Below, in pieces: positions 5,482 through 16,534 of a DNA stretch of 37,121 nucleotides. The stretch is from the IMG/VR virus record IMGVR_UViG_3300038701_000900, positions 1 through 37,121 of that record. The stretch is one strand, 5' to 3'. Origin of the DNA: a virus. The notes beneath the pieces are model-generated. The model saw only the letters and a program-made list of their open reading frames with translations. It was not told the origin of the DNA and made no database searches. A program made the position numbers and the translations under genes. Within the stretch, counting starts at the first letter, position 1. Each line of letters begins with the position of its first letter.

Positions 5482-5824
5482 TCTATCTGCGTTCCTTCGA
5501 GGTTGAGAGATCCACCGACAGTGAGGTTATCTGGCAGGGTAGTTATCTGCGTTCCTTCGAGGTTGAGAGATCCACCGACAGTGAGGTTATCTGGCAGGGT
5601 AGTTATCTGCGTTCCTTCGAGGTTGAGGTATCCACCGACAGTGAGGTTATCTGGCAGGGTAGTTATCTGCGTTCCTTCGAGGTTGAGTTATCAACCGACA
5701 GTGAGGTTATCTGGCAGGGTAGTTATCTGCGTTCCTTCGAGGTTGAGAGATCCACCGACAGTGAGGTTATCTGGCAGGGTAGTTATCTGCGTTCCTTCGA
5801 GGTTGAGAGATCCACCGACAGTGA
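5482..5824 (-). repeat. 60-bp tandem repeat array encoding 20-residue LRR-like units
   Basis: About 5.7 near-identical copies of a 60-bp unit. Read on the minus strand each gives a 20-residue unit of the pattern NLEGTQITTLPDNLTVGGSL, a short leucine-rich-repeat type. Differences between copies are confined to one short stretch: Ser TCT becomes Tyr TAC in the copy at 5581-5640, and GGA-TCT becomes TGA-TAA (two stops) in the copy at 5641-5700. DNA identity far beyond what protein selection needs points to recent unit duplication. There are no unique spacers, so it is not a CRISPR array. Confidence 0.95.
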
Positions 5825-8416: not shown

Positions 8417-8444
8417 TTGACAGATAAGCATTAATTATTATATA
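8417..8444 (+). promoter_or_regulatory. Plus-strand promoter TTGACA-N16-TATATA
   Basis: Consensus -35 TTGACA (8417-8422) with TATATA (8439-8444) 16 bp away, or TATAAA at 18 bp. It points at the ribbon-helix-helix gene starting at 8496. Confidence 0.55.
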
Positions 8445-8450
8445 AAAACA

Positions 8451-8495: not shown

Positions 8496-8672
8496 ATGAG
8501 TAAAAAAGAAAGACATTTTTTTGGCGGTCGCATCGACAAAGCAGTATATGATGAGTTCGTCGAGAATATTAATAAAGATAAGGCTAACGGCATTGTTGCG
8601 CCGTCTTCGTCTATCTCATGGGCTGTCGAAAACTTAATGCGCGAGAATAACGCTAAGCGCCGCGCTGGATAA
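8496..8672 (+). CDS. Small ribbon-helix-helix-like (Arc/CopG type) regulator
   Basis: A 58-residue protein on the plus strand inside the minus-strand block. The layout fits a ribbon-helix-helix fold: N-terminal strand HFFGGRIDKAVYDEF, helix, then SSSISWAVENLMRENN as the second helix. Good ribosome site (AAAGGATTAAACAAA). Its 3' end overlaps the VRR-NUC gene by 20 nt tail to tail, so it is antisense to that gene. Likely represses the recombination promoter and its own; that role is inferred from position and fold pattern. Confidence 0.65.
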   Translation: MSKKERHFFGGRIDKAVYDEFVENINKDKANGIVAPSSSISWAVENLMRENNAKRRAG

Positions 8673-10687: not shown

Positions 10688-13138
10688 TCAAAACTCAATC
10701 TCTTCTTGCTCTTTGTGGTCAATCTTAACCCATGCCGACGGCCTTGCGCCCCCGACTCTAGGCCTACCCCATTTAAATCCTAACGCAGACATAATTTTTC
10801 CAAGCCTAGCATTCGTGTACTTGTCACGGTGCAGCATTTTCACCCCAAGCGCTGTCCAAACATCTTCAAGGTCGTCGGATGTTACTATAGTCCTGCGCTC
10901 CACAACCTTTTTAACGGTCGGCATCCATGGGTCGAGTGTGTTACGTTTTTCCTGCGCGGCTTTTGCTAGCTCTTTCAGCTCATCCTCTAAATACAATTTT
11001 TCGCCTTTTTTAAACAAATGCACGGCCTCCGCCCATAACTGTTCTTTATCATTCGCAAGCGCTTTAACGTCCAGCTTATCGGCAACCTTTACAGGCCAAA
11101 ATCTTCTGTTACCTGTAACATCGTGCAAATAACCATCCGTTGGGTTTACCGTACCAGCCAGCACAAACTGACGTGGATACTCGCTAGGCTCATTCGCATA
11201 TTTTCGCACAATCCTATCGCTCTGCGTTGTAATCGCCTGCTTCAGCTCGTCTGAGTCCTTCTTTCTAAACCCAGATAATTCTGCAATTTCAATAATCAAA
11301 ACACCCTGCATTTTCGGTACTGTCTTGTCATTGCCCAAGTCACTGACCTTTATCGTGTCGTCAAAATATGCACGCCCGTGTATCGTCGATAACTCTTTTA
11401 ACATATACGATTTACCAGCATCCTGCGTACCTTCAAAAATAAGCATGTGGTCAAATTTCGCGCCCGGTCTGAATACGCGCGTAACCGCTGCGACCATCCA
11501 CTTACGGCCTATCGCGGCTATATAATTCGGGTCATCTTCTTCGGCTCCGCAATAATATGCCAGCCAATTATCCAAACGTTTTACGCCGTCCCATTCTAAT
11601 TTACTAAAATATTCTCGCGCTGGGTGGCGTGGCTTTTTAATTACTACAGAGTCCAGTACCTTTTTCAAATTCGCCAATGACGGCTTTAATCCCATCTGCT
11701 CCAGCTCAATCGCAAGCCTTGTGTTGTCCTCATCTTTCAGCGGCCTAACTTTAAATTTGTCAGGCGCTTCCCATGGTGGACAACTTACCAGCGTTTTTTC
11801 CTGTGAAAATTCGTCATAGCAAAATAAATCTTTAAACTTATCATGGTAGCGCAATATCAAATCAATATTGCTCAGGCTCGTGGGTGTTAGGCCCCCCTTG
11901 TCGGTGAGGTGTAGGCGCTCTTTCCAATCCTTCATCTCTTCGTCTTTTGCCGTTACCGCTTTCGTTTCGGTTTCGCCTGCGGAATATAAATCACGAACAC
12001 GCTGTGTATCCTCGCTATAAACCTCCTCATATATGTGATCTGGTATTTCGTTGAAATAATCAGGCGGGACGGGGGCGTGGTGATCGCCAGCGTCATCCTC
12101 GACGGGTTCGCTCTGCCCACCGTCCCTATCTACACGCGGGGGGACTTCCGCTTGCAGAATTCTGTTTTTGACGACCTCCAGCCCCTCTAGTGCGTGCAAA
12201 TCGTTAAAGTCTGTCGGTTTGTCTTTTACAGCTTGAAATTCAGGCCATGCAATATCACAATCACATTCAAGCGCGGTAGCAACAGCCTTTTCAATCCCCG
12301 TGTTTAATAAAAACCCCTCATCGCGCCACTCTTGCCATATTCTATCGTCGCCGCTGATGTTCTTATAATCCACAACATCTTTTCGATGCTCAAGCCTTAC
12401 CGTAAAAGCATCGTTGTCCGCCGCTATAATCAATCGAGAATCTGGAAATTTTTTACGTATCTCTGCGGTTACGGGCTTCAAATTCCCCGCGTTGTATGCC
12501 ACAATTACTGGCAGCCCCGTCGCCATACGCACCGACACGCCAGTCGCATACCCTTCAACAATAACAATCGTATCTTTCGAATCGTTCTTAAAAACGAGCG
12601 ACGCATATCCAACACAATCTCCACCGAACAGAAATCTTTTCGATCCGTCCGGCGCAATAAACTGCAAGCTCTTAAGCCGCCCCTGTGAGTAAATAGGCAG
12701 AACCAATGACCCGCTGGCGTTCTGCTTAGCGCCCAATGGCTCAATTCCTTTACGCACGCAATATTCATGATTGGTATCAGCAGGTCCGCACGCCGCCCAC
12801 AAAGTCGCAGCCTTTTCAGCCGCCTTTAATTTCTTGTTCTTCTCCTTCGCCTCGTTCGCCATTTTATCGGCTTCAATACGGGCGTTTAAAGAATCACGCT
12901 CGGCCTGCGTCAAATCTTTAGTATTCTTCGAGTGCCAACCATGACAAATACCGTCTTTAGAATATATAAAACGCCCCATGGCATAGTCGCCGGAAACATA
13001 TAGCTGATATCTTAAATCACGGCCCCTTTCGCCGTTTACGCGTGCGCGTCGCCACTTATCATCCCCGATTAATCGCTCATTCAAGGCATGCCCGTATGAT
13101 TCTATAAATTCAGAAAATTCTTGTATGAAGTCTTGCAA
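10688..13138 (-). CDS. Bifunctional primase-helicase (Toprim plus VirE/D5-type ATPase)
   Basis: An 816-residue replication protein. Start is a TTG at 13138: a TAG sits immediately upstream in frame, AAGGGG lies 8 nt before it, and the next Met is residue 53. The N-terminal part ends in a Toprim domain with IVIVEGYATG (catalytic Glu195) and IIAADND (241-243). The C-terminal part is a VirE/DUF-type helicase: EGTQDAGKS (Walker A, 569-577), VLIIEIAEL (Walker B) and an arginine-rich NRRFWPV segment. A flexible acidic linker (about 335-400) joins them. It probably primes and unwinds phage DNA at the origin. No zinc-ribbon primase motif was seen at the N-terminus. Confidence 0.88.
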   Translation of the reverse strand: MQDFIQEFSEFIESYGHALNERLIGDDKWRRARVNGERGRDLRYQLYVSGDYAMGRFIYSKDGICHGWHSKNTKDLTQAERDSLNARIEADKMANEAKEKNKKLKAAEKAATLWAACGPADTNHEYCVRKGIEPLGAKQNASGSLVLPIYSQGRLKSLQFIAPDGSKRFLFGGDCVGYASLVFKNDSKDTIVIVEGYATGVSVRMATGLPVIVAYNAGNLKPVTAEIRKKFPDSRLIIAADNDAFTVRLEHRKDVVDYKNISGDDRIWQEWRDEGFLLNTGIEKAVATALECDCDIAWPEFQAVKDKPTDFNDLHALEGLEVVKNRILQAEVPPRVDRDGGQSEPVEDDAGDHHAPVPPDYFNEIPDHIYEEVYSEDTQRVRDLYSAGETETKAVTAKDEEMKDWKERLHLTDKGGLTPTSLSNIDLILRYHDKFKDLFCYDEFSQEKTLVSCPPWEAPDKFKVRPLKDEDNTRLAIELEQMGLKPSLANLKKVLDSVVIKKPRHPAREYFSKLEWDGVKRLDNWLAYYCGAEEDDPNYIAAIGRKWMVAAVTRVFRPGAKFDHMLIFEGTQDAGKSYMLKELSTIHGRAYFDDTIKVSDLGNDKTVPKMQGVLIIEIAELSGFRKKDSDELKQAITTQSDRIVRKYANEPSEYPRQFVLAGTVNPTDGYLHDVTGNRRFWPVKVADKLDVKALANDKEQLWAEAVHLFKKGEKLYLEDELKELAKAAQEKRNTLDPWMPTVKKVVERRTIVTSDDLEDVWTALGVKMLHRDKYTNARLGKIMSALGFKWGRPRVGGARPSAWVKIDHKEQEEIEF

Positions 13139-13204: not shown

Positions 13205-13558
13205 TTATAAATTTATTATAGCGTCTATGTTTTTCTTTTTAGTAACATCTTTGGCTATTTTTTTATGTTCTTTTATACAGTGCTTAAGCGCGTATTCTTG
13301 TGCTGGTGTCAGCTTTGATAGCCAGTTACCATACTTTAATTCGCCGCCCTTGGCAATTTCTTGTGACTCAGACACCAGTGCCGCGCGGTCAATATCGCGC
13401 ACGCTCCCCATCGCTGGCAGCTTCAAGCCGTTCTTTTCAAATTCTTCTGCCGCATAATTCAATGCTGCCTCAATCGTCGCCTTTAAGCTCAGACTGTGAA
13501 ATTCACTTAGCGTCAATAGCCGTGCGTGCGTCTCATCGTCAATCTTAATCTGTTTCAT
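13205..13558 (-). CDS. Ribbon-helix-helix-like hypothetical protein, 117 aa
   Basis: The N-terminus MKQIKIDDETHARLLTLSEF followed by SLSLKATIEAALNYAAEEF has the strand-helix-helix pattern of ribbon-helix-helix DNA-binding proteins, with an extra basic helical tail (HCIKEHKKIAKDVTKKK). ATGA overlap with the gene upstream. As second-to-last before the promoter gap, it ends its own transcript segment before the primase-helicase promoter. Regulation of early genes is a reasonable guess only. Confidence 0.55.
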   Translation of the reverse strand: MKQIKIDDETHARLLTLSEFHSLSLKATIEAALNYAAEEFEKNGLKLPAMGSVRDIDRAALVSESQEIAKGGELKYGNWLSKLTPAQEYALKHCIKEHKKIAKDVTKKKNIDAIINL

Positions 13559-13857
13559 GCCTTGCCCTCCATATATTTACGCATCATCTCTTTTCGTCGC
13601 TTTCTTGTGTATTTGCACAAATAATAAGCAATTGTCCCAGCATCGCGATGCATCGCCCATGCAATCTTTGGAATACTGTATTCTAGCGCCCTTAACTCGC
13701 GCGCAACCGCTATCCGCTGGTTAAAATATGTATCCTTACGGCAATCGCCGCGCAACCTACGCGCACTATACCCCATTTCATCGCAAATATATTCAAAATC
13801 TGCCTTAACGTTGTTTTTCCAAATCCTGTCGCGCTCTTGTTTTTTCCATGGCCTCAT
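13555..13857 (-). CDS. DnaA domain-IV-like helix-turn-helix protein, 100 aa
   Basis: The central part (residues about 34-82: RRLRGDCRKDTYFNQRIAVA then RELRALEYSIPKIAWAMH, RDAGTIAYYL) follows the DnaA C-terminal DNA-binding signature, in which a helix-turn-helix is followed by the R-D-x-[ST]-T-V/I segment. It lacks any AAA+ domain, so it is not an initiator by itself but may bind origin sequences. Overlaps both neighbours by 4 nt (ATGA). A second protein with the same signature is encoded on the other side of the divergent region. Confidence 0.6.
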   Translation of the reverse strand: MRPWKKQERDRIWKNNVKADFEYICDEMGYSARRLRGDCRKDTYFNQRIAVARELRALEYSIPKIAWAMHRDAGTIAYYLCKYTRKRRKEMMRKYMEGKA

Positions 13858-14045
13858 TTGATCACCCCTAGTTTCATATCTATATCATAGTTTAACTTCA
13901 CCAGTGCCGATCGCTCCCTCGTCAGTAAGATCATGTCGCTTTTTACCTGCTCTAACAAAGCCTCGTACTTGCTTAACTCAACATTTATTCTTTGTATATC
14001 GGTCATATTGTGATCCCGTACAATTTTTAATTGCTTGCTGTTCAT
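13854..14045 (-). CDS. Small coiled-coil protein, 63 aa
   Basis: Predicted helical throughout (for example VELSKYEALLEQVKSDMILL) with heptad-like hydrophobics. Separated by 1 nt from the gene before and overlapping the DnaA-like gene by ATGA. Not recognised. Confidence 0.55.
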   Translation of the reverse strand: MNSKQLKIVRDHNMTDIQRINVELSKYEALLEQVKSDMILLTRERSALVKLNYDIDMKLGVIK

Positions 14046-14046
14046 G

Positions 14047-14355
14047 TCAAACGCTCCTCAGGTAATCGGTGCGAGCTTCTTTCTCCATATCTGTCTCTTC
14101 TTCTAGTTCCTTTGCGATCTGAAGCGCCCGTGTACAAAAATAATCAGCCGTTGCCTCGTAATGCTCAAAATCCACATCCAGATCAAACATAACCTCATAC
14201 TTATCGTTTTGAAATGATGGTGTGCTTAATCTAATTGTGCGCAAGTTTTTCGCCAGATCAAACATATCATTAGAAAACGAGGTTGCCTGCTCTTTTGTTT
14301 CTAAGTTATCAAGCTGTGATTCTAGCTCTTTAAATTTTTCTGCTGTGTTGTTCAT
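14047..14355 (-). CDS. Hypothetical acidic helical protein, 102 aa (first gene of leftward operon)
   Basis: First leftward gene, ribosome site AAGGGA 8 nt before the ATG, promoter-like element 14395-14424 upstream. Sequence is acidic and helical (MNNTAEKFKELESQLDNLET at the start, ELEEETDMEKEARTDYLRSV at the end). No motif recognised. Position first in the early operon suggests a regulatory or host-takeover role, unproven. Confidence 0.6.
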   Translation of the reverse strand: MNNTAEKFKELESQLDNLETKEQATSFSNDMFDLAKNLRTIRLSTPSFQNDKYEVMFDLDVDFEHYEATADYFCTRALQIAKELEEETDMEKEARTDYLRSV

Positions 14356-14394
14356 TTAGTAAGTCCCTTCTTTTTTAATAAAATAACCGTACCT

Positions 14395-14424
14395 TATATA
14401 AAAACCATTTTCAACCCCTGTTAA
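14395..14424 (-). promoter_or_regulatory. Leftward early promoter TTAACA-N18-TATATA
   Basis: On the minus strand TTAACA (14424-14419) and TATATA (14400-14395), 18 bp apart, about 40 bp before the first leftward gene. Three phased repeats lie just upstream of its -35 (14443-14484), so it is the natural target of a regulator binding them. Confidence 0.5.
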
Positions 14425-14770
14425 AACTTTTTTATTTATAGGTGGGTGACTCCAGTCACCCATTAGTCACCCATTTTGCACCCATATTTAAGGCATTACG
14501 TAAATGGACGCGCTTTTATTATAGTCCTGTATGTACCAATAAACCACAGAAAACCGCGCTTTAGCCGTGACGGTTTTTTATTTCGTCACTTTTATATATT
14601 TTTAAGGGGGGAGGTCTTATTTATTTTTTACCCCCCCCCTCCCCTTATACTCTTTCTCTTTAAAAGAAAGAAAAGAGGTGTCCAGTGCCCAAAGCCGCAG
14701 AAAACTGCGATTTAGTGGTACATCAGATGGACATGTACCTCGTCCATTTACATATCGCATAAATTTAAAC
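14425..14770. other. Divergent intergenic control region: candidate replication origin or early switch
   Basis: About 490 bp (14356-14843) without a convincing gene lie between the leftward and rightward operons. Besides the two promoters and the phased repeats it holds: a GTGACG/CGTCAC dyad (14567-14589); a G-run/C-run hairpin (14604-14646); a pyrimidine/purine dyad (14650-14677); an imperfect direct repeat of 21 bp (14544-14564 and 14695-14715, 18 of 21 identical), the second copy with a perfect CGCAG-AAAA-CTGCG hairpin; and a GGTACAT/ATGTACC dyad (14717-14739) with an overlapping ATGGAC/GTCCAT dyad (14727-14747). Density of dyads and AT-rich tracts, flanking DnaA-like genes and the position at the strand switch suggest origin or operator function. 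Frames here are short and lack ribosome sites. Confidence 0.5.
14443..14484. promoter_or_regulatory. Three 11-bp phased repeats (AGTCACCCATT) with an inverted copy: operator or iteron array
   Basis: AGTCACCCATT occurs at 14454 and 14465, with a degenerate TTGCACCCATA at 14476, exactly 11 bp apart each time, that is one helical turn. The first copy also forms a perfect 9-bp dyad with TGGGTGACT at 14443-14451. All sit 20-60 bp upstream of the leftward promoter. The spacing would place bound proteins on one face of the helix. Confidence 0.6.
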
Positions 14771-14799
14771 TTGATTTAAAATTCTTTTGTGTATATTGT
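14771..14799 (+). promoter_or_regulatory. Rightward early promoter TTGATT-N17-TATTGT
   Basis: TTGATT at 14771-14776, 17 bp spacer, TATTGT at 14794-14799. Expected transcription start near 14806, 38 bp before the first well-supported start codon (14844). This excludes the ATG at 14787 as the start of the first gene. Confidence 0.6.
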
Positions 14800-14843
14800 C
14801 TGAGATGTGGAAACGAAACAAACGACATTTAAGGGGACTAGAA

Positions 14844-14999
14844 ATGACCACCACAGAAAAAGTTACACTATCAGCAATTATTGTTTTGGCGCTTACTTTG
14901 TTGACGCTATTTGGCGGCGTTAGTCAAAAAGATATAGCCAAGTGCCAAGAAACAACAAACTACAGTGCAGAGCGTTGCTTGCATGAGATTGCGAGGTAA
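14844..14999 (+). CDS. Small membrane protein, 51 aa (first rightward gene)
   Basis: Start at ATG 14844, with AAGGGGA 6-7 nt upstream; the in-frame ATG at 14787 lies within the promoter spacer. One hydrophobic helix (residues about 7-25) after a short N-terminus MTTTEKV, then a polar tail with two Cys. Ends 3 nt before the next gene. No function assigned. Confidence 0.6.
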   Translation: MTTTEKVTLSAIIVLALTLLTLFGGVSQKDIAKCQETTNYSAERCLHEIAR

Positions 15000-15002
15000 G
15001 AA

Positions 15003-15164
15003 ATGAAAACCTATGATTTTACCACCAATACACCGCCAGAGCCAAATGTTTTTGACTTTACGCAGCCTGAGCCGCTGCTGGCGATTGATGAGAAAATAAA
15101 CTACATCGCTGACCTTTTGGAAACGGCTTTGAAAATGGAGTATTTGAGATGTACGACACGATAA
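15003..15164 (+). CDS. Hypothetical protein, 53 aa
   Basis: Starts 3 nt after the stop of the membrane protein. Pro-rich start (MKTYDFTTNTPPEPNVFDF) followed by a helix (IDEKINYIADLLETALK). Its 3' end overlaps the next gene by 16 nt in another frame. Tight packing on both sides supports it as real. Not recognised. Confidence 0.5.
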   Translation: MKTYDFTTNTPPEPNVFDFTQPEPLLAIDEKINYIADLLETALKMEYLRCTTR

Positions 15165-15304
15165 AAATTTTTTTAGCGCTGCTGATATTTGCAGCCGGTG
15201 CAGCCGCAGGACATTACCACGGCAAAGCCACAGTATATGAAAATCTGTACACAACAGCGGATCATATGTTGATTAACCCCGTAGCGATGGAGAAACTAAA
15301 ATGA
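15149..15304 (+). CDS. Small membrane-anchored protein, 51 aa
   Basis: Begins MYDTIKIFLALLIFAAGAAA, one transmembrane helix or an uncleaved signal anchor, followed by a polar C-terminus. Overlaps the previous gene by 16 nt and the next by ATGA. No lipobox. Function unknown. Confidence 0.5.
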   Translation: MYDTIKIFLALLIFAAGAAAGHYHGKATVYENLYTTADHMLINPVAMEKLK

Positions 15305-15780
15305 CCGATAAAATTACAATAGAACTAACACAAGAACAGCTTGATAAGATTAAGCCGCTGCTAGAAGAGGCTAAGCCTACTCACTGGCGTAGGTGGAAGC
15401 CTGAAAGGGATGATTGGTATTATTTTATTTCAAGCACCGCCGGAATTGATGGGTTTAGAAACAATTGTGACGAGGTAGCTCGCGGCTTAATATCATTAGG
15501 CAACGCATTCCAAACACGCAAACAGGCTGAGAAAATCCGTGACCGCAATAAATTAATACACGAGCTATGGCAAGAAGATGGTGCGCTGTTGAAGCCTGAT
15601 TGGGGTAATAGTGATCGGGATAAGTTTTCTATTTATTACGACCACGGCTTAAGAATGTGGACGCAAACCGAGGCTTATACTATGCAAGAGGCGTTTATTC
15701 TACCCCACTTCAAAACCAAAGAATCAGCCCAAGCCATCATTGAAAAATACGGTGATCGCCTAGATTTGTTACTGGATTAA
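15301..15780 (+). CDS. Conserved-looking phage hypothetical protein, 159 aa
   Basis: Helical N-terminus (TIELTQEQLDKIKPLLEEAK) then a motif of the type W+P...WYYF...G and a GNAFQTRKQAEK segment, a pattern I have seen in small proteins of many phages and whose role is not known. ATGA overlap with the preceding gene. The order of aromatic residues (W-R-R-W) suggests a globular domain, perhaps nucleic-acid binding, without firm support. Confidence 0.6.
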   Translation: MTDKITIELTQEQLDKIKPLLEEAKPTHWRRWKPERDDWYYFISSTAGIDGFRNNCDEVARGLISLGNAFQTRKQAEKIRDRNKLIHELWQEDGALLKPDWGNSDRDKFSIYYDHGLRMWTQTEAYTMQEAFILPHFKTKESAQAIIEKYGDRLDLLLD

Positions 15781-15784
15781 AACC

Positions 15785-15982
15785 ATGGGACACGAAGGCA
15801 AAACATACTATGAGGATTACGCAAAAGGCATGACATATGCCGAGATTGCGAAAAAGCACGGGCGGGGCGATGGGGCTATTGCAGGCGCTATTCATAGCTA
15901 TAGGAAGCTAGCGGGGATTAAGCCGCACGCGGACAGGGCTGGTGAAATATTTAACAAGAGGTGGAAACGAGAAAATGAATAA
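15785..15982 (+). CDS. Small helix-turn-helix-like protein, 65 aa
   Basis: The segment MTYAEIAKKHGRGDGAIAGA followed by IHSYRKLAG matches the spacing of a helix-turn-helix (helix, Gly turn, recognition helix). The remainder is basic. It overlaps the DnaA-like gene by 8 nt and follows the 159-residue gene by 4 nt. Probably a DNA-binding regulator of early rightward or replication genes. Confidence 0.5.
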   Translation: MGHEGKTYYEDYAKGMTYAEIAKKHGRGDGAIAGAIHSYRKLAGIKPHADRAGEIFNKRWKRENE

Positions 15983-16421
15983 AACATACTACAGGATAAT
16001 GCCACACCACAGGAACAATCTTGAGGTGATTCGTGATTTGTCGTCATGCAATGCGCAAGACCCTATTGAAAATCTAAAGCAGATTAGCGCCCTAATTGAA
16101 GCGGTGCTGTCTGGTTCTGTTGCGTGTAGCTACTCAGATGCAACGCTCAAAGAACAAGACGCAGAATGCTATAAGCAATTTGCAGAGCTGTGTGCGGATT
16201 TAGAGATCGATCCCGATGTTATCAGGGGCCGAAGACGACATGCACACCTCGTGGAGCATAGAAAGCACATTGCGAGGGCTTTGTATAGCGATGATAAATT
16301 CTCACTGCCACAGGTGGGGCGTGTTATGAATCGCGACCACTCCATGATTAAATATTATGTGGATGAACGATTCGCCCAACGCAAGAACGAAAAGGCGAAA
16401 GAATATCACATGACACGTTGA
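15975..16421 (+). CDS. DnaA domain-IV-like DNA-binding protein, 148 aa
   Basis: Start at ATG 15975, which has a purine-rich site (AGGTGGAAACGAGAAA) and an 8-nt overlap with the previous gene; 15942 is less likely. The C-terminal half carries a DnaA domain-IV signature: RGRRRHAHLVEHRKHIARAL (84-103), then the helix-turn-helix FSLPQVGRVMNRDHSMIKYY (109-128) with RDHS. The N-terminal half is helical and unrelated to DnaA; no AAA+ motifs. May bind DnaA-box-like or phage origin sites, or act as a transcription regulator. Last gene before a strong terminator. Confidence 0.7.
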   Translation: MNKTYYRIMPHHRNNLEVIRDLSSCNAQDPIENLKQISALIEAVLSGSVACSYSDATLKEQDAECYKQFAELCADLEIDPDVIRGRRRHAHLVEHRKHIARALYSDDKFSLPQVGRVMNRDHSMIKYYVDERFAQRKNEKAKEYHMTR

Positions 16422-16428
16422 TTTTTAT

Positions 16429-16457
16429 TTGACTAGCTATGGGCGATGTTGTATGTT
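16429..16457 (+). promoter_or_regulatory. Promoter TTGACT-N17-TATGTT just before a terminator
   Basis: TTGACT (16429-16434), 17 bp, TATGTT (16452-16457). Predicted start near 16464, only about 25 bp before the terminator stem, so it would give a short RNA rather than an mRNA. Confidence 0.35.
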
Positions 16458-16463
16458 TTACAC

Positions 16464-16534
16464 ACGCATAGGAAGAATCCCCCTCTGCCCCTCTAGCGCT
16501 TTCCTTTCCAATTGAGCCTAGAGGGGTTTTTTTT
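16464..16534 (+). ncRNA. Candidate short RNA, about 70 nt
   Basis: Region between the 16429 promoter and the intrinsic terminator. It holds no ATG frame and contains CCCCCTCTGCCCC, able to pair in more than one way with the AGAGGGG arm of the terminator, plus an AGGAAG/CTTTCC pairing. It could be a stand-alone regulatory RNA or just the end of the upstream mRNA. Strand and ends are predictions. Confidence 0.3.
16488..16534 (+). terminator. Intrinsic terminator after early-right genes
   Basis: Perfect 9-bp stem CCCCTCTAG / CTAGAGGGG with a 21-nt loop, followed by eight T and a further T-rich tract. Separates the rightward early genes from the genes starting at 16637. Confidence 0.85.

What the first reader, a model, noticed from the sequence alone, without database searches (positions are those of the whole stretch)
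14443..14484. Helically phased 11-bp repeats upstream of the leftward early promoter
Three units (two exact AGTCACCCATT, one degenerate) with strict 11-bp spacing, one in a perfect 9-bp dyad, immediately upstream of the first leftward promoter. Spacing by one helical turn is typical of cooperative regulators or iterons. No repressor-type gene is obvious, so its binder is unknown; the two DnaA-domain-IV-like proteins and two RHH/HTH proteins are candidates.
Basis: partly seen in the sequence, partly recalled or inferred. Interest (0 to 1): 0.6.

Follow-up and report, generated by a model that had tools for sequence, protein, structure and literature searches.

The report
Phased binding-site array beside replication genes
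A short stretch of viral DNA carries four copies of an 11-base word lined up along one face of the double helix, at the head of the genes that copy the virus's DNA; it is most likely a docking array for a viral protein that starts or controls DNA copying, a new example of a known kind of device.

Summary
The array is real. It has four units, not three: an inverted AGTCACCCACC (14441-14451), a CC spacer, two exact AGTCACCCATT (14454-14475) and a degenerate TTGCACCCATA (14476-14486). An exact tandem 10-12-mer plus a 9-bp inverted copy occurred in 0 of 300 simulated 37-kb sequences. It sits in the 488-bp gap between the leftward replication operon (RHH gene, VapE primase-helicase, helicase, nuclease, exonuclease, RecT) and the rightward genes. 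The only close relative found is a 42.5-kb phage contig filed in a Thalassobium MAG (VapE 58% identical). Its homologous gap shares several boxes. At the array's place it lacks AGTCACCCATT but has five GGGT cores on the same strand, all on one helical face (spacings 42, 22, 9, 11; P about 0.0006-0.004). In both phages the gap holds the genome-wide minimum of cumulative GC skew. So helical phasing and a GGGT core look conserved; the 11-bp unit is not. Best reading: origin-proximal iteron/operator array for a protein of the replication operon (VapE winged-helix tail or RHH protein); the binder is unresolved. Two RHH genes (13205, 8496) have relatives in the other phage; the DnaA-like genes were not found there. 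The nearby promoter is weak and unproven.

The parts
14441..14451 (-). Unit 1, inverted (AGTCACCCACC on the - strand); left arm of the 9-bp dyad
14454..14464 (+). Unit 2, AGTCACCCATT; right arm of the dyad (AATGGGTGACT in operon direction)
14465..14475 (+). Unit 3, AGTCACCCATT, exact tandem copy 11 bp on
14476..14486 (+). Unit 4, degenerate TTGCACCCATA, in 11-bp phase
   Evidence: the CACCC/GGGT core is kept
14356..14843 (.). Divergent non-coding region, probable origin and early control region; homologous to L138 1683-2313
   Evidence: 9 shared exact matches of 10 bp or more against a maximum of 6 in 300 shuffles; cumulative GC-skew minimum of both genomes lies here
14497..14510 (-). Flanking box CGTCCATTTACGTA, array-side copy of the conserved inverted pair
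   Evidence: L138 2105-2117 GTCCATTTACATA
14741..14754 (+). Flanking box CGTCCATTTACATA, distal copy
   Evidence: L138 1768-1778 TATGTAAATGG
14677..14687 (+). Conserved box GGTGTCCAGTG (two exact copies in L138, at 1807 and 1873)
14603..14647 (.). G-tract/C-tract inverted repeat with a counterpart in L138 (1919-1994)
14394..14405 (-). GTTTTTATATAA, possible -10-like element; identical 12-mer upstream of the exonuclease gene at 8438-8449
13205..13558 (-). RHH-like protein directly upstream of VapE; candidate binder, homolog in L138
   Evidence: NF041200 BfmA N-terminal domain E 4e-5, just under its cut-off; own fold model poor
10688..13138 (-). Toprim primase plus VapE-type helicase with C-terminal winged-helix-like domain; candidate initiator
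8496..8672 (+). 58-aa RHH-like protein on the opposite strand, homolog at the same place in L138; candidate binder

Best explanation
The array is a set of short, helically phased protein-binding sites (core GGGT on the operon-direction strand, ACCC on the other) inside a conserved origin-like and early control region at the head of the phage's replication operon. A phage protein made by that operon binds the units cooperatively on one face of the DNA, next to the AT-rich stretch at about 14356-14440. The most likely binder is the VapE primase-helicase through its C-terminal winged helix, with the RHH protein 13205 as co-binder or alternative. The bound complex loads the helicase there and so starts replication; because the same stretch carries the operon's upstream sequences, it probably also sets operon transcription. 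Shown here: the array, its position, the conserved boxes around it, the conserved phase and core in one relative, and the GC-skew minimum. Inferred: origin function, cooperativity, identity of the binder, effect on transcription.
For: Array beyond chance. Homologous region in L138 with shared boxes. Five GGGT cores in L138 at the homologous place on one helical face, R = 0.958, P 0.0006 (0.004 with free period), count P 0.006 by Markov shuffles; the highest same-strand GGGT counts per 100 bp in each genome fall here. Cumulative GC-skew minimum of both genomes inside this region (window 14658; relative 14418 of its contig). VapE helicase domain resembles PDB 7pds, 'Similar to D. nodosus vapE' (E 8.5e-38); related mobile-element Rep helicases recognise short iterons beside their own genes through a C-terminal domain (PMC7581432). 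C-terminal domain of this VapE modelled at pLDDT 85 with winged-helix topology. Distant Toprim-replicase phages carry phased direct plus inverted 9-10-bp arrays just 3' of the replicase gene.
Against: Only four units, one of them degenerate. SaPI origins lie downstream of rep, whereas this array is upstream of the operon and 1.3 kb from the VapE start. The skew minimum coincides with the switch in gene direction, which alone can produce it. Only one close relative exists for comparison, and the GGGT core was chosen by eye after seeing both sequences, so the P values are somewhat optimistic. In the window the GGGT count alone is not unusual for the region's composition. L002 and L003, with VapE about 45% identical, do not have the GGGT array. 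The winged-helix call is by topology; no PDB hit is significant. No binding or replication data.
Confidence: 0.42

Rival explanations
1. Purely transcriptional operator: an RHH protein (13205, fourth gene of the operon, or the lone opposite-strand 8496) binds the dyad and the direct units as cooperating dimers and represses or activates the leftward operon, with no role in replication.
For: RHH genes in both phages. The predicted DNA-contacting strand of 13205 is identical in the relative (MKQIKI), which fits a short conserved core. In L002 and L003 a different RHH protein with a zinc ribbon sits directly upstream of VapE, with dyad repeats close upstream of its start codon. RHH proteins such as ParB(pSM)/omega bind short direct and inverted repeats cooperatively over promoters (PMC9499535).
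Against: The array lies 86-131 bp upstream of the first start codon and about 27 bp upstream of the best, weak promoter candidate, not over a strong promoter. RHH arrays of the omega type are contiguous heptads, while L138 units are 9-42 bp apart. The presumed operator of 8496 beside its own promoter is a TTGACA/TGTCAA dyad, not this motif.
Confidence: 0.33
2. The units are modified DnaA-type boxes, spaced 11 bp like head-to-tail DnaA sites, read by the phage DnaA-domain-IV-like proteins (13555, 15942) or by host DnaA.
For: Protein 15942 matches the DnaA C-terminal domain at E 1.1e-5. Around unit 4 the sequence TTTTGCACC is one base off TTWTNCACA, and the unit 2/3 junction reads TTAGTCACC. The proteins and the exact unit sequence are both absent from the relative.
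Against: Both matches stay below Pfam's curated cut-off; 13555 is only E 0.018. The proteins were not found in the relative's contig at E 0.01, yet a phased GGGT array is there. DnaA-box near-matches are common by chance.
Confidence: 0.12
3. The strand-biased G clusters act as nucleic acid, not as protein sites: they favour an R-loop or G-rich structure when the leftward operon is transcribed.
For: G runs are enriched on the operon-direction strand in both regions (GGG 16 against 7; 21 against 11).
Against: Does not explain the exact 11-bp duplication, the perfect dyad or the one-face phasing.
Confidence: 0.05
4. Local slippage duplication with no function.
For: An exact tandem 10-12-mer alone appears in about 3% of simulated 37-kb sequences.
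Against: The inverted copy, the fourth phased unit, the place in a conserved control region and the phased cores in the relative.
Confidence: 0.06

Closest known systems
SaPI / SCCmec Rep-helicase iteron origins (SaPI Rep, Cch2)
   Same: Helicase with a C-terminal winged-helix-like domain; short repeats near the replicase operon; direct plus inverted repeats in one non-coding region. This VapE matches the PDB chain 'Similar to D. nodosus vapE'.
   Different: Those origins lie directly downstream of rep (PMC7581432); this array is upstream of the operon, has 11-bp units and sits next to the early genes. Binding is untested.
RHH operators and centromeres (omega/ParB of pSM19035; from memory also Arc, CopG, MetJ)
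   Same: Several short units, direct and inverted, near the start of an operon that encodes an RHH protein.
   Different: Unit is 11 bp, not 7; units in the relative are not contiguous but lie about whole helical turns apart; binder not shown.
oriC DnaA-box arrays (9-mers 2 bp apart, 11-bp pitch; from memory)
   Same: 11-bp head-to-tail pitch next to AT-rich DNA.
   Different: Sequence is CACCC, not CACA; the phage proteins were matched only to the DNA-binding domain of DnaA.

Membership tests
Iteron-type replication origin of a VapE/Rep helicase | Several copies of a short repeat in a non-coding region at the replicase operon | tested here: met
   Four units at 14441-14486 in the 488-bp gap at the operon head
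Iteron-type replication origin of a VapE/Rep helicase | Repeat conserved with its replicase in relatives | tested here: inconclusive
   Core and phase kept in the one close relative, unit sequence not; absent from L002 and L003
Iteron-type replication origin of a VapE/Rep helicase | Replicase has a dsDNA-binding C-terminal domain | tested here: inconclusive
   Winged-helix topology at pLDDT 85; PDB matches not significant; binding not testable here
Iteron-type replication origin of a VapE/Rep helicase | Origin lies directly downstream of rep (SaPI arrangement) | tested here: not met
   The array is upstream of the operon, 1.3 kb before the VapE start
Iteron-type replication origin of a VapE/Rep helicase | Autonomous replication in cis | not testable with these tools
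   Needs a plasmid assay or infected-cell coverage
RHH operator | Linked gene for an RHH protein | tested here: met
   13205-13558, RHH-like by a profile match just under its cut-off, homolog in L138
RHH operator | Sites overlap the promoter they control | tested here: inconclusive
   No convincing promoter; best candidate about 27 bp from the array
RHH operator | RHH protein binds the sites | not testable with these tools
   Needs a gel shift or footprint
DnaA-box array | TTWTNCACA boxes | tested here: not met
   Read from the sequence: the box at unit 4 is one base off, the others two or more; no exact box in the array

The most novel reading that the evidence does not exclude
A phage origin in which only the helical face of tiny GGGT cores is under selection: unit sequence and spacing drift freely by whole turns, so a replicase or RHH protein reads a phase rather than a fixed repeat.
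Probability: 0.12. Interest if true: 0.6.

Novelty: new member of a known kind. Interest (0 to 1): 0.4.

Why it matters
Cis-acting control regions of phages with VapE-type primase-helicases are little studied: one paper in the held library combines VapE, phage and replication origin, and its title and abstract concern streptococcal pathogenicity islands, not such an origin. A conserved, compact region with phased sites, flanking inverted boxes and a short list of candidate binders gives a direct bench test of where and how such phages start replication.

Tried and rejected
DNA similarity of the region to annotated phages: none. Exact double unit in IMG/VR: none. Direct IMG/VR searches with window VapE, 13555 and 15942: none. 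L143 is the same phage as L138, 100% identical, so not independent. Search of 392 genomes of G001's order for VapE: no second close relative. Rfam: only sub-threshold chance hits. Exact array motif in L138: not above chance. GGGT array in L002 and L003: absent. A generic 9-12-bp tandem scan does not single out the L138 region; only the GGGT-core test does. AlphaFold model of RHH 13205: too poor to use.

Full report
What is there. The array at 14441-14486 reads GGTGGGTGACT-CC-AGTCACCCATT-AGTCACCCATT-TTGCACCCATA. It holds one inverted unit (14441-14451), two exact direct units (14454-14475) and a fourth degenerate unit in the same 11-bp register. Exact tandem 10-12-mers appear in 10 of 300 simulated 37-kb sequences, and none of the 300 also had a 9-bp inverted copy close by. 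The array is therefore real and more than chance.

Where it is. It lies in a 488-bp non-coding gap between a leftward operon and rightward genes. The leftward operon encodes small proteins, an RHH-like protein (13205-13558), a Toprim-VapE primase-helicase (10688-13138), a helicase, a nuclease of the VRR-NUC kind (named from its sequence, no profile search run), an ExoVIII-like exonuclease and a RecT-like protein (RecT also by its homolog's place in the annotated L002). The window is a virus record of 37,121 bp. No similar DNA was found for 13500-16500 among annotated phages.

Relatives. The closest relative found is contig NVUW01000016.1 (42,489 bp), filed in a Thalassobium MAG. It has a 99-bp terminal direct repeat, so it is likely a complete phage genome. 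VapE is 58% identical, helicase 66%, exonuclease 58%, RecT 52%, large terminase 59%, RHH 53%. More distant are MW202485.1 (L002; VapE 44% by tblastn) and L003 (42%).

The homologous region. L138 1683-2313 is the same divergent gap. Nine exact matches of 10 bp or more are shared, against at most six in 300 shuffles. In the same orientation and order are TATGTAAATGG, AAAGAGTATA, GGGGGTAAAAA and GTCCATTTAC; GGTGTCCAGTG is shared in the opposite orientation. A flanking inverted pair built on CCATTTAC encloses the middle part in both. The exact AGTCACCCATT is absent from L138.

Phase test. Units read in operon direction share the core GGGT. In the window, cores start at 14483, 14472, 14461 and 14417 (spacings 11, 11, 44). 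In L138, between the GTCCATTTAC box and the first gene, five cores start at 2122, 2164, 2186, 2195 and 2206 (spacings 42, 22, 9, 11). All five lie on one face of a 10.5-bp helix (R 0.958; P 0.0006 for random positions, 0.004 if the period may vary; P 0.006 for five or more cores). The highest same-strand GGGT counts per 100 bp in each genome fall in this region, although in the window the count alone is not unusual for the region's composition (P 0.39 for the total, 0.10 for the maximum). The core is short, was picked after both regions had been looked at, and rests on one relative, so the P values are somewhat optimistic. L002 and L003 lack the array.

Origin signs. The cumulative GC skew has its genome-wide minimum at 14658 in the window and at 14418 in the relative's contig, both inside this gap. 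Gene direction switches there too, so this is supportive and not decisive. AT-rich stretches flank the array.

Candidate binders. (a) VapE: the helicase domain matches PDB 7pds, 'Similar to D. nodosus vapE', and the last ~80 residues are modelled as a winged-helix-like domain at pLDDT 85, without a significant PDB match. SaPI Rep and Cch2 use C-terminal domains to read iterons (PMC7581432). (b) RHH 13205: in L138 too, with an identical predicted DNA-contact strand MKQIKI. (c) RHH 8496: a 58-aa protein encoded against the operon, with a counterpart at the same place in L138 (37% over 46 aa); a TTGACA/TGTCAA dyad near its own promoter in both phages suggests a different operator. Its RHH assignment is by reading the sequence; no profile matched. 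(d) DnaA-like 13555 and 15942: not found in L138's contig.

Promoter. No strong sigma-70 promoter lies next to the array. A 12-mer GTTTTTATATAA at 14394-14405 recurs upstream of the exonuclease gene at 8438-8449 and may mark a shared phage promoter type; this is inference.

Analogy. Marine phages with a Toprim replicase (L031, L044, L047 and kin) have 9-10-bp direct and inverted arrays just 3' of the replicase gene. They show that phased short repeats near such genes recur with unrelated sequences.

Judgement. The array is a genuine, probably functional set of phased sites in an origin-like and early control region. Whether it primarily starts replication (0.42) or only controls transcription through an RHH protein (0.33) cannot be decided without binding data. 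It is a new member of a known kind.

Noticed in passing
window 8496-8672 (+); L138 13247-13423 (-): Homologous 58-aa RHH-like genes encoded against the replication operon between the VRR-NUC and exonuclease genes, each with a sigma-70-like promoter and a TTGACA/TGTCAA dyad; a likely regulator.
   Followed up: partly
L044 9549-9765; L047 5160-5390; L031 8690-8850 (and kin among L032, L042-L063): Dense 9-10-bp direct and inverted repeat arrays (TGGTACGCTT, GTAACACCC) directly 3' of a Toprim-ATPase replicase gene in marine phages; look like iteron origins with replaceable unit sequence.
   Followed up: partly
L002 13197-13439 (-) and 13451-13477; L003 7724-7966 (+) and 7691-7708: A conserved RHH plus zinc-ribbon protein (78% identical between the two) sits directly upstream of VapE, with dyad repeats close upstream of its start codon; probable autoregulator.
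   Followed up: partly
window 5484-5824: 5.7 tandem copies of a 60-bp unit that read on the - strand as a 20-aa repeat (TVGGSLNLEGTQITTLPDNL); one copy (near 5686-5694) carries two stop codons in that frame, so the repeat protein looks interrupted.
   Followed up: no
NVUW01000016.1 (L138, L140-L142): A contig of a Thalassobium MAG is a complete-looking 42.5-kb phage with a 99-bp terminal repeat; a 7.6-kb IMG/VR contig (L143) is 100% identical to part of it.
   Followed up: yes
L004 5754-7955: The helicase gene downstream of VapE reads as one 733-aa frame with an intein-like insert (starting CFVSGTKVSTLSGD, ending VHNC before HWG) in the DE-H motif.
   Followed up: no
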